Source: Vibrio cidicii (lineage in GTDB: Bacteria; Pseudomonadota; Gammaproteobacteria; Enterobacterales; Vibrionaceae). Taken from it: a stretch of DNA of 64,000 nt. The notes beneath the pieces are model-generated. The model made no database searches. It was not told the origin of the DNA and worked only from the letters and a program-made list of their open reading frames with translations. Positions 10,235 to 62,853 of this stretch are shown in pieces (the stretch's first letter is position 1; each line of letters opens with the position of its first letter). The stretch is from the NCBI RefSeq assembly GCF_009763805.1, contig NZ_CP046804.1, positions 1,798,001-1,862,000 on the forward strand, given 5' to 3'. The translations under genes and the position numbers were made by a program.

Positions 10235-11825
10235 ATGCCGATATCGCTCGGAAACGCTTTTATCAAGAATTTTCTTGGTAAGGCACCTGATTGGTATAAA
10301 CTTGCCATCATTTCTTTTCTAATCATTAACCCTATCGTTTTTTTCCTCGTCAATCCTTTCGTAGCGGGCTGGCTACTGGTGGTAGAGTTCATCTTTACGT
10401 TGGCGATGGCACTAAAATGTTACCCACTTCAACCCGGCGGTCTATTAGCGATTGAGGCAATTGCTATCGGGATGACCAGCCCAGAACAAGTCAAACATGA
10501 ACTGGTTGCGAATATCGAAGTGCTATTGCTTCTGGTATTCATGGTAGCTGGCATCTACTTCATGAAGCACCTGCTTCTGTTTATCTTCACCAAGATTTTG
10601 CTCGGTATCCGCTCTAAAGCGATGCTTTCTTTAGCGTTTCTGCTTTGCAGCCGCATTTCTTTCGGCATTTCTAGATGCCCTGACGGTGATCGCTGTCGTT
10701 ATCAGTGTTGCCGTCGGGTTCTACTCAATCTACCACAAAGTGGCCTCTGGCAGCGGGGTAAGTTCAGACCACGATCATACCCAAGATGATCACTTTACTG
10801 AGCTAACTCGAGATGACCTTGAGAATTACCGCGCATTCCTACGTTCACTATTGATGCACGCCGGTGTGGGTACGGCATTAGGTGGCGTAACCACCATGGT
10901 TGGCGAACCGCAAAACCTGATCATTGCCGATCAAGCGGGCTGGCTGTTCGGTGAATTTTTGATTCGTATGGCTCCGATCACACTGCCCGTTTTTATCTGC
11001 GGTTTACTTACCTGTGTTGCGGTCGAGAAGTTTAAAGTGTTCGGCTATGGCGCTGAGTTACCAGACAACGTTCGTCATATTCTGGTCGATTTCGACAATG
11101 AAGAACGCAAAAATCGCACCAATCAAGACGTCGCAAAGCTATGGATTCAGGGCATGATTGCCGTGTGGCTTATTGTTGGTCTCGCACTGCATTTGGCAGC
11201 GGTCGGTTTGATTGGTCTGTCGGTCATCATTCTCGCTACTGCGTTCACTGGTGTAATTGAAGAGCATTCTCTGGGTAAAGCGTTTGAAGAAGCGCTGCCA
11301 TTCACTGCACTACTCGCGGTGTTCTTCTCAATCGTCGCGGTGATCATCGACCAAGAACTGTTTAAACCCGTGATTGATGCGGTATTGGCTCTCGAAGACA
11401 AAGGAACGCAGCTTGCGATGTTCTATGTCGCTAACGGTCTGCTCTCTATGGTTTCAGACAACGTGTTTGTTGGCACTGTTTATATCAACGAAGTGAAAAC
11501 CGCCTTGCACGAAGGTTTGATTAACCGCGATCAGTTTGACTTGCTGGCGGTTGCTATCAACACGGGGACCAACTTACCTTCGGTGGCCACACCTAACGGT
11601 CAGGCGGCATTTCTGTTTTTATTGACTTCGGCCTTGGCGCCTTTGATCCGCCTCTCTTATGGACGTATGGTGCTGATGGCACTGCCATATACGGTCGTGC
11701 TCGCTTTGGTGGGCCTGTTTGGTATTGTGTTCTTACTTGAGCCGATGACAGCCTGGTTTTATGACGCGGGCTGGATTTCTCATCATGTTGGTAGTGCAGC
11801 TCAAGCAGTTTCTGCTGGTCACTAA
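10235..11825 (+). pseudogene. nhaB: Na+/H+ antiporter NhaB, interrupted by a one-base frameshift
   Basis: Inner-membrane antiporter that expels Na+ in exchange for protons, needed for sodium and pH homeostasis in marine bacteria. The first frame runs 10235-10789 and the second covers the rest to 11825. Joined with one base removed the protein is 529 residues, right for Vibrio NhaB, with about 12 membrane helices and the conserved GVTTMVGEPQNLI and DNVFVGTVYI segments in the second part. The switch falls at 10636-10640, where GCG-TTT-C-TGC should read GCG-TTC-TGC (continuing SLAF-CFAAAFLSAFLDALTV). The gene starts with ATG after AGAGAA. If the extra base is real the protein is cut to about 184 residues and inactive. 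The same lesion in eight other genes here suggests an artefact. Confidence 0.92.
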
Positions 11826-11858
11826 ATATTTCCGTTGATTAAGAAACTTATCCGAGAT

Positions 11859-11888
11859 AAAAAGCTCTGAGTATTCAGGGCTTTTTTA
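11859..11888 (+). terminator. Terminator after nhaB
   Basis: AAAAAGCTCTGA pairs imperfectly with TCAGGGCTTTTTT around a GTAT loop, and a T-rich tail follows, 35 bases after the nhaB stop. Confidence 0.8.
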
Positions 11889-11914
11889 TTTTCTTTACAA
11901 AAGGATTGCTTAAA

Positions 11915-60448: not shown

Positions 60449-61515
60449 TGTCGTTTTTTATTGCCAGTTCACCACACGCCCATAATCGACGCAGCACGCC
60501 TGACCTGATGAAATGGGTCGCGTTGTGTGCCTTGCCTGGCTTGATTGCACAAAGCTACTTTTTCGGCTGGGGCACCTTGATTCAACTGATCATGGCCATC
60601 ACCCTAGCATTGAGTTTAGAAGCCTTGGTCATGCTGTTGAGAAAGCGTTCACCTGCGCGCGCTTTACGCGATAACAGCGCCCTCGTCACGGCATGGTTAC
60701 TCGCCGTCGCTATCCCGCCTTTGGTGCCTTGGTGGATCATCGCCATTGGTCTAGTGTTTGCCATCGTGATTGCCAAGCACCTTTATGGCGGCTTGGGGCA
60801 AAACCCATTCAATCCGGCCATGGTCGCTTACGTGGTTCTGCTTATCTCATTTCCGGTGCAAATGACCAGTTGGAATGAGCCAAGCATGCTGCAAGAGATT
60901 GGGCAAACCGTTGGCCGCGAAGCTACCACTTTTGGCGATACACTTTCCCTAATTTTTCGTGGTTTGACGCTTGATGGCTCTTCACTCCAGCAAGTGCGTG
61001 CAGGCATCGATGGCATCACCACAGCGACGCCACTGGATGCTTTCAAAACTGGGTTACGCGCTGGTGCGACACCCTCAGAGATTCTTCAACAGCCGATCTT
61101 TGAAGGCTTGGCAGGGCTCGGCTGGCAGTGGGTAAACCTCGCCTATCTGCTCGGCGGTTTGGTGCTTATCAAACAAAGAATCATCCAATGGCACATTCCA
61201 GCAGGATTTCTTGGCGCATTAACGTTACTCAGCAGCCTATTTGCGCTGTTTGCACCTGGCGAAACTGCTTCTCCAGTCCTTCATCTACTCTCGGGCGCAA
61301 CCATGCTCGGCGCGTTTTTTATCGCCACCGACCCGGTGTCTGCATCCACCACGGTGAAAGGTCGATTGATCTTTGGCGCCATCATCGGCACCTTGGTTTT
61401 CGTGATTCGCAGCTGGGGCGGATACCCTGATGGGGTCGCCTTTGCCGTTCTGTTAGCCAATATGTGTGTACCGTTGATCGACTACTACACCAAACCGCGA
61501 ACTTACGGACATTAA
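60448..61515 (+). CDS. rnfD: Rnf complex subunit RnfD
   Basis: Membrane subunit of the Rnf complex that carries a covalently linked FMN. It has 355 residues with eight to ten membrane helices. The flavinylation segment is in GITTATPLDAFKTG (about residue 187), where the family attaches FMN to threonine, and the GQNPFNPAMVAYVVLLISFP helix resembles NqrB. Its ATG overlaps the rnfC stop by one base, and rnfG starts 13 bases after it. No defect seen. Confidence 0.93.
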   Translation: MSFFIASSPHAHNRRSTPDLMKWVALCALPGLIAQSYFFGWGTLIQLIMAITLALSLEALVMLLRKRSPARALRDNSALVTAWLLAVAIPPLVPWWIIAIGLVFAIVIAKHLYGGLGQNPFNPAMVAYVVLLISFPVQMTSWNEPSMLQEIGQTVGREATTFGDTLSLIFRGLTLDGSSLQQVRAGIDGITTATPLDAFKTGLRAGATPSEILQQPIFEGLAGLGWQWVNLAYLLGGLVLIKQRIIQWHIPAGFLGALTLLSSLFALFAPGETASPVLHLLSGATMLGAFFIATDPVSASTTVKGRLIFGAIIGTLVFVIRSWGGYPDGVAFAVLLANMCVPLIDYYTKPRTYGH

Positions 61516-61528
61516 ACAGGAAAAGTGC

Positions 61529-62167
61529 ATGATTAACGCCATTCGTCACAACGGATTAACGCTCGCTATTTTCGCCTGTGTCACCACAGGTTTGGTGGCC
61601 GTTACCCAATATTTCACCAAAGATCAGATCAAGCGCCAAGAGCAAGCGCAGCTCTCTTCGGTGCTCAATCAAGTGATCCCCAAACAGATGCACGATAATC
61701 TGCTGTTTGAATCCTGTATTTTGCTCACCAATCCGGCCCTTGGCACCGATAAAACCATGCCCGCTTACATCGCGACCTTGAACGGTGAACCAACCGCGAT
61801 CGCGATTGAATCCATCGCTCCAGATGGCTATAACGGCGCGATTAAAATCATCACAGGCATTGATAACACAGGCACGGTTTTGGCAACTCGCGTGCTCAGC
61901 CATCAAGAAACCCCCGGATTGGGTGATAAGATTGACTTACGTGTGAGCGACTGGATCAGCAGTTTTTCCGGTAAGCAGCTCAATGAAAGCAACTATGACC
62001 GTTGGAAGGTGCGCAAAGATGGCGGCGATTTCGACCAATTTACTGGCGCGACCATCACACCCCGTGCCGTTGTAAAAGCGGTGCGTAATACGGTAGAGTT
62101 TGTCAACGCTAATCGCCAGCAACTTCTGACTCAGCCATTAAACTGTGGAGAGAACAGCCATGAGTGA
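61529..62167 (+). CDS. rnfG: Rnf complex subunit RnfG
   Basis: Periplasm-facing subunit with a second covalent FMN. It has 212 residues. One N-terminal helix (about residues 8-30: GLTLAIFACVTTGLVAVTQYF) is followed by the FMN-binding domain (VLSHQETPGLGDKID near residue 120) and the flavinylation motif DQFTGATITPRAVVKAV near residue 175, with threonine as the attachment site. Its stop overlaps the rnfE ATG by eight bases. It is one of the parts of the operon free of frameshifts. Confidence 0.93.
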   Translation: MINAIRHNGLTLAIFACVTTGLVAVTQYFTKDQIKRQEQAQLSSVLNQVIPKQMHDNLLFESCILLTNPALGTDKTMPAYIATLNGEPTAIAIESIAPDGYNGAIKIITGIDNTGTVLATRVLSHQETPGLGDKIDLRVSDWISSFSGKQLNESNYDRWKVRKDGGDFDQFTGATITPRAVVKAVRNTVEFVNANRQQLLTQPLNCGENSHE

Positions 62168-62853
62168 ACATAAAACTTTGCTGAAAAACGGCATGTGGAG
62201 CAATAACCCCGCACTGGTTCAACTGCTCGGGTTATGCCCACTGCTTGCCGTCTCCTCAACCGTCACCAATGCGCTTGGCCTCGGTATTGCTACCTTACTG
62301 GTGTTGGTTGGCTCAAACGTCAGTGTCTCTTTGATCCGCAATCATGTCCCGAAAGAGATCCGCATCCCCGTGTTTCGTCATGATCATCGCGTCTTTAGTA
62401 AGCTGCGTGCAATTGCTGATGAATGCCTATGCTTACGGACTCTATCTTTCTCTTGGGATTTTCATTCCTTTGATCGTTACCAACTGCATCATCATCGGCC
62501 GCGCAGAAGCGTATGCCTCTAAAAATGAGGTGTTGCCCGCAGCGTTAGACGGCTTTTGGATGGGGATGGGCATGACCAGCGTTTTGGTCGTGCTCGGCGC
62601 GATGCGTGAAGTTCTCGGCAACGGGACACTCTTTGATGGCGCTGATTTATTACTGGGAGATTGGGCCGCTGCACTGCGTATAGAGATATTCCATTTTGAC
62701 ACCAGCTTTTTATTAGCCTTGTTGCCACCGGGGGCATTTATTGGCGTCGGCTTTTTGATTGCCGTGAAAAACGTGATTGATGCCAATCTCAAAGCACGTC
62801 AGCCTCAACAGGAAAAACCGGCAATCGAGCGCGCGCGCGTCACTAACGCCTAA
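62160..62853 (+). pseudogene. rnfE: Rnf complex subunit RnfE, interrupted by a one-base frameshift
   Basis: Membrane subunit of the Rnf complex, paralogous to RnfA. The first frame from the ATG at 62160 carries MSEHKTLLKNGMWSNNPALVQLLGLCPLLAVSSTVTNALGLG with the conserved loop cysteine, and the second carries GIFIPLIVTNCIIIGRAEAYASKNEV with the second cysteine and the later helices. Joined with one base removed it is 230 residues, the family length. The switch is at GTTTC 62372-62376: one base fewer gives IRIPVFVMIIASLVSCVQLLM. An upstream TTG could start the frame but the MSEHKT start has a GGAGAG ribosome site. Without this subunit the Rnf complex would not function. Confidence 0.93.

What the first reader, a model, noticed from the sequence alone, without database searches (positions are those of the whole stretch)
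10636..62376. Nine conserved genes share the same single-base lesion, always an extra T/A in GTTTC/GAAAC
The sites are nhaB (10636-10640), malZ (14949-14953), ABC binding protein (18736-18740), pta (22090-22094), oppD (29167-29171), moaE (34613-34617), luxO (39224-39228), tetR (56396-56400) and rnfE (62372-62376). Removing one base from the triplet in each restores the family sequence and a normal length. All nine have G before and C after the run, i.e. GTTC or GAAC would be correct. Nine independent pseudogenes with one lesion and one flanking context is very unlikely, so this is a systematic artefact or marks some property of certain GTTC/GAAC sites. Intact GTTC is present elsewhere (tRNA-Asn T arm, metG near 5693), so only a subset is affected. 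For malZ and moaE a nearby G/C run is an alternative position.
Basis: seen in the sequence. Interest (0 to 1): 0.8.

Follow-up and report, generated by a model that had tools for sequence, protein, structure and literature searches.

The report
Sulfur-modified DNA misread as frameshifts
A Vibrio genome looks as if about a fifth of the conserved genes checked are broken by one extra base, but the breaks are almost certainly reading errors, most likely at places where the bacterium swaps sulfur into its DNA backbone, so the public sequence would carry an accidental partial map of that chemical mark.

Summary
In the window 7 of the 9 named genes show a +1 frame transition whose 7-16 bp interval contains the named GTTTC/GAAAC. 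moaE and tetR are consistent but not proved. In 400 kb of the same chromosome, two reference genomes give 34 frame transitions; 30 are +1, and all 30 contain the motif (31 of 34 overall; null mean 0.80, 0 of 20000 draws reach it).

These are not pseudogenes: lapB, purF, hisB, hisD, bioB, adhE and one of 11 23S copies are hit. GTTC/GAAC is a Dnd phosphorothioation motif. I predicted a dnd system; the genome has dndBCDE and dndFGH, and its DndC carries the Thr-Arg-Ser loop reported for the GAAC/GTTC type. Affected sites prefer T/G after GTTC, as published for modified sites. A second Vibrio with such a DndC shows the same lesions in other genes; 13 further genomes show none.

Best reading: base-calling insertions at highly phosphorothioated sites in an uncorrected long-read assembly. 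Reads and platform were not available.

The parts
10631..10643 (+). nhaB frame transition (+1), contains GTTTC 10636-10640
   Evidence: 5 reference genomes; Pfam NhaB on the upstream piece
14947..14956 (-). malZ-like alpha-amylase frame transition (+1), contains the motif 14949-14953
   Evidence: 2 reference genomes; Pfam Alpha-amylase
18735..18741 (-). ABC substrate-binding protein frame transition (+1), contains the motif 18736-18740
   Evidence: 5 reference genomes; Pfam ABC_sub_bind
22087..22096 (+). pta frame transition (+1), contains GTTTC 22090-22094
29165..29174 (-). oppD-like ABC ATPase frame transition (+1), contains the motif 29167-29171
   Evidence: 5 reference genomes; Pfam ABC_tran and oligo_HPY
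34613..34617 (-). moaE, first codons; the homologous frame reaches 34614 but the listed ORF starts at 34533
   Evidence: Pfam MoaE; consistent, little sequence upstream of the change
39219..39231 (-). luxO-like sigma-54 activator frame transition (+1), contains the motif 39224-39228
   Evidence: 12 reference genomes; Pfam Sigma54_activat on the downstream piece
56396..56400 (+). TetR-family regulator; domain match breaks off here
   Evidence: Pfam TetR_C_7 stops at residue 181, profile 95 of 119; no close ortholog; consistent only
62364..62379 (+). rnfE frame transition (+1), contains GTTTC 62372-62376
   Evidence: 11 reference genomes; Pfam Rnf-Nqr

Best explanation
The lesions are consensus sequence errors, not mutations. 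The strain carries a Dnd system, dndBCDE with restriction genes dndFGH, about 1.1 Mb from the window, of the type that puts sulfur into the backbone between G and A/T of GAAC/GTTC at a minority of sites. The genome was most likely assembled from native long reads of nanopore type without accurate short-read correction. Where a GAAC/GTTC site is phosphorothioated in a large share of molecules, the altered signal is called with one T (A) too many and the error survives in the consensus. Shown: the lesions and their single context, the dnd genes, the DndC specificity loop, the flank preference, a second species with the same signature and the same DndC loop, and its absence in the compared parts of 13 other genomes. 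Inferred: that the sulfur is present, that the platform was nanopore, and that sulfur causes the extra base.
For: Motif: 30 of 30 +1 transitions contain GTTTC/GAAAC, 31 of 34 transitions overall, 0 of 20000 random draws reach this. Without any reading frame, GTTTC is the commonest one-base excess in DNA alignments to G230, 12 of 56, next commonest 3. Prediction met: DndC in own genome over the cut-off, which 29 of 227 Vibrio genomes, own included, have; DndB, C, D, E, G, H and DndF. The DndC loop GYPAPTRSFRWC equals that of an E. coli DndC; PMC12193691 section 10 ties Thr-Arg-Ser there to GAAC/GTTC. Flank: T or G follows in 33 of 36 affected against 578 of 1222 unaffected sites, Fisher P 5e-8; PMC9521924 passages report A/C before and T/G after modified sites, with 12% of sites modified. 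Rate 36 of 1258, 2.9%; PMC9069010 section 19 reports 3.9% of GTTC and 4.4% of GAAC motifs seen by nanopore error in wild-type Salmonella, none and 0.6% in a dndC mutant. Replicate: G010 (TRS loop) has 14 of 15 +1 transitions in the motif, in no gene that is hit in own. No +1 motif transition in 13 other genomes, 1,054,942 bp compared. Error, not mutation: 33 of 166 compared genes had hits in more than one frame, against 0 of 96 between two control genomes; hit genes include lapB, purF, hisB, hisD, bioB, tdk and adhE, each with 2-5 reference genomes, dndC itself, and one of 11 23S copies, at AGAAC; two other 23S copies lack a base at a C run or in a G run, as long-read errors often do (the last point is recalled).
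Against: No reads and no platform record for any of these genomes. Of 8 compared genomes with the TRS loop only own and G010 show the signature; I assume that the other 6 were sequenced or corrected otherwise. In G010 and the other relatives only dndC was read, not the rest of the dnd cluster. Four dnd+ E. coli regions show no such breaks in core genes. Published occupancy is below 40% at all sites in Salmonella Cerro 87, and only two sites exceed 35% in E. coli B7A (PMC6459556), low for a majority consensus error. The published A/C preference before the motif is weak here: 23 of 36. The passages and section that I read on nanopore and phosphorothioate do not say that the error is an inserted base. 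The same AGAAC in 23S is affected in 1 of 11 copies only. 11 of the 36 sites rest on a single reference genome.
Confidence: 0.86

Rival explanations
1. The same kind of base-calling artefact, but caused by base methylation: a methyltransferase marks a motif that contains GAAC/GTTC, and the base-caller fails at a minority of these sites.
For: Methylation-linked nanopore errors are documented (PMC11610573 abstract and section 5). An ORF with a weak methyltransferase match, below Pfam's cut-off, lies beside dndB. Affected sites share little beyond GTTC plus T/G, which a degenerate methylation motif could also give.
Against: The errors in that paper are purine or pyrimidine ambiguities; it looked at base ambiguities, so insertions were not its subject. 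Own and G010 share the TRS-type DndC, and the flank preference after the motif is the one published for phosphorothioation. I did not catalogue methyltransferases in either genome.
Confidence: 0.09
2. A plain base-caller weakness at GTTC contexts, independent of any DNA modification.
For: Own shows ordinary long-read errors as well: a -1 transition at a G run and one-base losses in two 23S copies.
Against: G112 (no DndC over the cut-off) shows the ordinary long-read pattern: four -1 transitions with two or more references in 34,197 bp, all near homopolymer runs, none at GTTTC; it also has two +1 transitions with one reference each, neither at GTTTC. No +1 motif transition in 452,702 bp of four genomes without DndC over the cut-off.
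Confidence: 0.04
3. Real one-base insertions in the chromosome, for instance from mutagenic processing of phosphorothioated sites by the strain's own restriction proteins.
For: The sites coincide with the motif that this type of Dnd protein handles.
Against: 33 of 166 compared genes are multi-frame, extrapolating to about 880 sites in the genome, in genes such as lapB and purF; a free-living cell would hardly survive this. No gene is shared between the sets of the two species.
Confidence: 0.01

Closest known systems
DndABCDE/DndFGH phosphorothioation of GAAC/GTTC (E. [quoted passage not shown]
   Same: Gene set dndBCDE plus dndFGH, TRS specificity loop, DndC C-terminal piece 68% identical to an E. 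coli DndC, a minority of GAAC/GTTC sites concerned, T/G preferred after the motif.
   Different: Seen here only through its supposed trace in a finished assembly; an HNH gene and a second DndB/DpdB-like gene sit between dndH and dndE.
Nanopore detection of phosphorothioates by base-call errors (PMC9069010; passages and section 19 seen)
   Same: Base-call errors concentrate at GAAC/GTTC in a dnd+ strain; the share of motifs is similar.
   Different: There a deliberate comparison of reads with amplified DNA; here the error would have passed into a consensus genome as an extra base and broken gene models.
Methylation-induced nanopore consensus errors (PMC11610573; abstract and section 5 seen)
   Same: A DNA modification leaves strain-specific errors at one motif in an assembly.
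   Different: Backbone sulfur instead of base methylation, and insertions instead of base ambiguities.

Membership tests
Dnd phosphorothioation system, GAAC/GTTC type | dndB, dndC, dndD and dndE in one cluster | tested here: met
   dndC is broken into two frames in the assembly, with GTTTC at the junction
Dnd phosphorothioation system, GAAC/GTTC type | cognate restriction genes dndFGH nearby | tested here: met
   DndG and DndH, DndF
Dnd phosphorothioation system, GAAC/GTTC type | DndC specificity loop Thr-Arg-Ser | tested here: met
   GYPAPTRSFRWC in own and G010; rule from PMC12193691 section 10
Dnd phosphorothioation system, GAAC/GTTC type | T/G preferred after the marked motif | tested here: met
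   33 of 36 against 578 of 1222 in own; 10 of 13 against 328 of 724 in G010, P 0.027; published in PMC9521924. Assumes that the lesions mark the modified sites
Dnd phosphorothioation system, GAAC/GTTC type | A/C preferred before the marked motif | tested here: inconclusive
   23 of 36 in own, 8 of 13 in G010
Dnd phosphorothioation system, GAAC/GTTC type | sulfur present in the DNA backbone at GAAC/GTTC | not testable with these tools
   needs mass spectrometry or iodine cleavage
Dnd phosphorothioation system, GAAC/GTTC type | sulfur donor DndA or IscS | not tested
   not searched for
Modification-induced nanopore consensus error | assembly made from native nanopore reads without accurate correction | not testable with these tools
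Modification-induced nanopore consensus error | errors tied to one modification motif | tested here: met
   30 of 30 +1 transitions at GTTTC/GAAAC

The most novel reading that the evidence does not exclude
Deposited long-read-only genomes of bacteria with TRS-type DndC hold a readable, site-resolved fossil of the phosphorothioate map in their false frameshifts. In these Vibrio some sites would then be sulfur-marked in about half or more of the molecules, above the limit of 40% reported for Salmonella Cerro 87 and E. coli B7A.
Probability: 0.4. Interest if true: 0.75.

Novelty: new variant of a known kind. Interest (0 to 1): 0.58.

Why it matters
Hundreds of gene models in such a genome would be wrong (about 880 by extrapolation), and tools that count pseudogenes, core genes or contamination inherit the damage. 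In return, a plain FASTA file would report on a backbone modification: which strains use Dnd, with which motif, and which sites are occupied most. That would make phosphorothioate specificity and site choice testable across public genomes without new experiments. I saw no paper that describes phosphorothioation leaving insertions in consensus genomes, in the rows listed by the searches; these cover open-licence PMC papers only, and all but one search listed only the top part of their matches.

Tried and rejected
Independent pseudogenes: rejected, too many genes and core functions. Inherited lesions: rejected, none of the genes with motif transitions is shared between own and G010. Overall GTTTC excess as a test: weak, 158 against 164.9 expected in the window and 1085 against 853 and 965 in 400 kb. 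A first DNA-level gap count was noisy at 74-76% identity: 176 and 181 frame-breaking gaps even between the two control genomes, in which no gene had hits in more than one frame; I therefore used protein-guided transitions. A word-level substitution comparison at GTTC gave nothing specific. Class-wide DndC search: 8 of 369 genomes over the cut-off, own included, too few complete ones to use. E. coli test (dndC matches in 204 of 5426 genomes; 4 regions read): the breaks annotated there lie in mobile, truncated or accessory genes (transposases, integrase remnants, a ProQ/FinO gene, a LysR fragment, a hypothetical protein, an alcohol dehydrogenase remnant, a cut nanM), and I did not examine their contexts; that RefSeq leaves out frameshift-rich assemblies is recalled, so this is a weak test. 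G197 (11,033 bp compared) says little.

Rows against or beside the reading: G122 has one -1 transition with a GTTTC in its interval, and G112 one transition of size 5 with one. Own has transitions without the motif: 3 of 34, 10 of 50, several of odd size with one reference. G010 has one +1 transition without the motif, supported by 11 reference genomes. Two of the 38 own +1 rows are opposite-strand duplicates, hence 36 sites, of which 25 have two or more reference genomes. An ftsK break in own has one reference genome only.
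Full report
What was checked. I took 400 kb of the same chromosome around the window (C2:1.6-2.0 Mb; plus the window) and stretches of 14 other Vibrio genomes. For each conserved gene I asked whether the protein of a relative matches the DNA in two frames joined at one point, and I measured the interval in which the frame can change. Nothing was corrected; the pieces were compared as they stand.

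Result in the window. Seven of nine genes show a +1 change, each inside an interval of 7-16 bp that contains the named GTTTC/GAAAC, supported by 2-12 reference genomes. moaE changes within its first codons. The tetR match to its domain breaks off at the named site, but no close ortholog was found.

Result in 400 kb. With two reference genomes, 34 distinct transitions: 30 are +1 and all 30 contain the motif; 31 of 34 overall. The same number of intervals drawn at random in the same genes contains 0.80 on average, at most 6, in 20000 draws. An unprompted count of 5-mers puts GAAAC/GTTTC first (31 observed, 0.82 expected). With 14 reference genomes, own has 32 transitions seen by at least two genomes: 28 of the +1 class (shift +1 or -2), 27 of these with the motif. 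Counting any support, 50 transitions, 38 of exactly +1, 38 of 38 with the motif. Between two control genomes 0 of 96 genes had hits in more than one frame, against 33 of 166 in own. DNA alignments to G230 that use no reading frame give the same leading context, 12 of 56 one-base excesses against 3 for the next.

Error, not biology. Genes hit include lapB, purF, hisB, hisD, bioB, tdk, adhE and torA, each with two to five reference genomes, and ftsK with one; lapB is essential in E. coli (recalled). Extrapolation gives about 880 sites in the genome. One of 11 23S copies has an extra A in an AGAAC that the other ten keep, and two other copies lack one base, at a C run and in a G run, as long-read errors often do.

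Why GTTC. I recalled GAAC/GTTC as a Dnd phosphorothioation motif, noted the prediction and then searched. The genome has DndC over the curated cut-off, as have 29 of 227 Vibrio genomes, own included. The island at C2:653.7-669.7 kb holds dndF, dndG, dndH, an HNH gene, a DndB/DpdB-like gene, dndE, dndD, dndC and dndB. dndC is itself split in the assembly, with a GTTTC at the junction. The DndC loop reads GYPAPTRSFRWC, as in an E. coli DndC; PMC12193691, section 10, ties Thr-Arg-Ser at this place to the GAAC/GTTC type.

Which sites. In compared genes 36 of 1258 GTTC/GAAC sites are affected, 2.9%; 25 of the 36 have two or more reference genomes. T or G follows GTTC in 33 of 36 affected and 578 of 1222 unaffected sites (Fisher P 5e-8); in the first set of 31 the rate is 22 of 285 for GTTCT and 1 of 397 for GTTCA. 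PMC9521924 (passages seen) reports for Salmonella Cerro 87 that 12% of the motifs are modified, with A/C before and T/G after. The preference before the motif is weak here (23 of 36). PMC9069010 (passages and section 19) reports that nanopore errors mark 3.9% of GTTC and 4.4% of GAAC motifs in wild-type Salmonella, and none and 0.6% in a dndC mutant.

Replicate and controls. G010, another Vibrio with a DndC of the TRS loop, has 15 +1 transitions, 14 with the motif (with two or more references 11 of 12 of the +1 class), at 13 sites, again with T favoured after GTTC (9 of 13 against 154 of 724), and in no gene that is hit in own. None of the 13 other genomes has a +1 motif transition in 1,054,942 bp. 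Nine of these 13 have DndC over the cut-off: six with TRS, one TKS, two R-x-K. Four do not: G009, G012 and G026 have no match and G112 a weak one far below the cut-off. G112 has four -1 transitions with two or more references in 34,197 bp, all near homopolymer runs and none at GTTTC, which is what ordinary long-read errors look like. So Dnd is not sufficient: the sequencing method must matter too, and I could not see it.

Tension. PMC6459556 (passages and section 10) finds every site below 40% occupied in Salmonella Cerro 87, and only two sites above 35% in E. coli B7A. A consensus error needs either higher occupancy at some sites in these Vibrio or a base-caller and polisher that yield to a minority. 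Methylation of a GAAC-containing motif would be an equally mechanical cause; PMC11610573 (abstract and section 5) shows such errors as purine or pyrimidine ambiguities, the only kind it looked for. I rate phosphorothioation far ahead because of the predicted genes, the loop, the flank and the second genome.

Organism. metG matches several named Vibrio at 93-94% identity, V. xiamenensis listed first; the genome itself is unnamed. Because the genus also holds a listed pathogen, no gene was restored and no set of corrections is given.

Noticed in passing
window 59690-60342: GTTTC on the minus strand recurs at spacings of 108 or 216 bases (59690, 59798, 59906, 60014, 60230, 60338), which suggests a 108-base coding repeat inside the rnf cluster (probably rnfC; the name is recalled).
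   Followed up: no
window 57349-57358: A -2 transition on the minus strand seen with 2 reference genomes, without the motif; it may be an opposite-strand effect at a gene boundary.
   Followed up: no
L084:6677-9560 (C2:661.7-664.6 kb): Between dndH and dndE lie an HNH endonuclease gene, an unassigned 242-aa ORF and a second DndB/DpdB-like gene.
   Followed up: partly
L143-L153 (11 copies of 23S rRNA): The copies differ at 42 alignment columns, some as clustered changes (1466-1494) that look like a variant helix, which suggests several rRNA variants in one genome.
   Followed up: no
L233-L249 (Vibrio dndC genes): Of 17 relatives' DndC loops read, 11 are TRS, 5 are R-x-K and one is TKS (G206), a loop not among the types named in PMC12193691 section 10.
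   Followed up: partly
L250:1168-2419: Two overlapping open frames upstream of dndF with GAAAC at 1702 and 1715, possibly one more broken gene; no PADLOC family.
   Followed up: no
C2:1872957-1872967: A -1 transition near a GGGGG run seen with 5 reference genomes, an ordinary homopolymer-type error.
   Followed up: no
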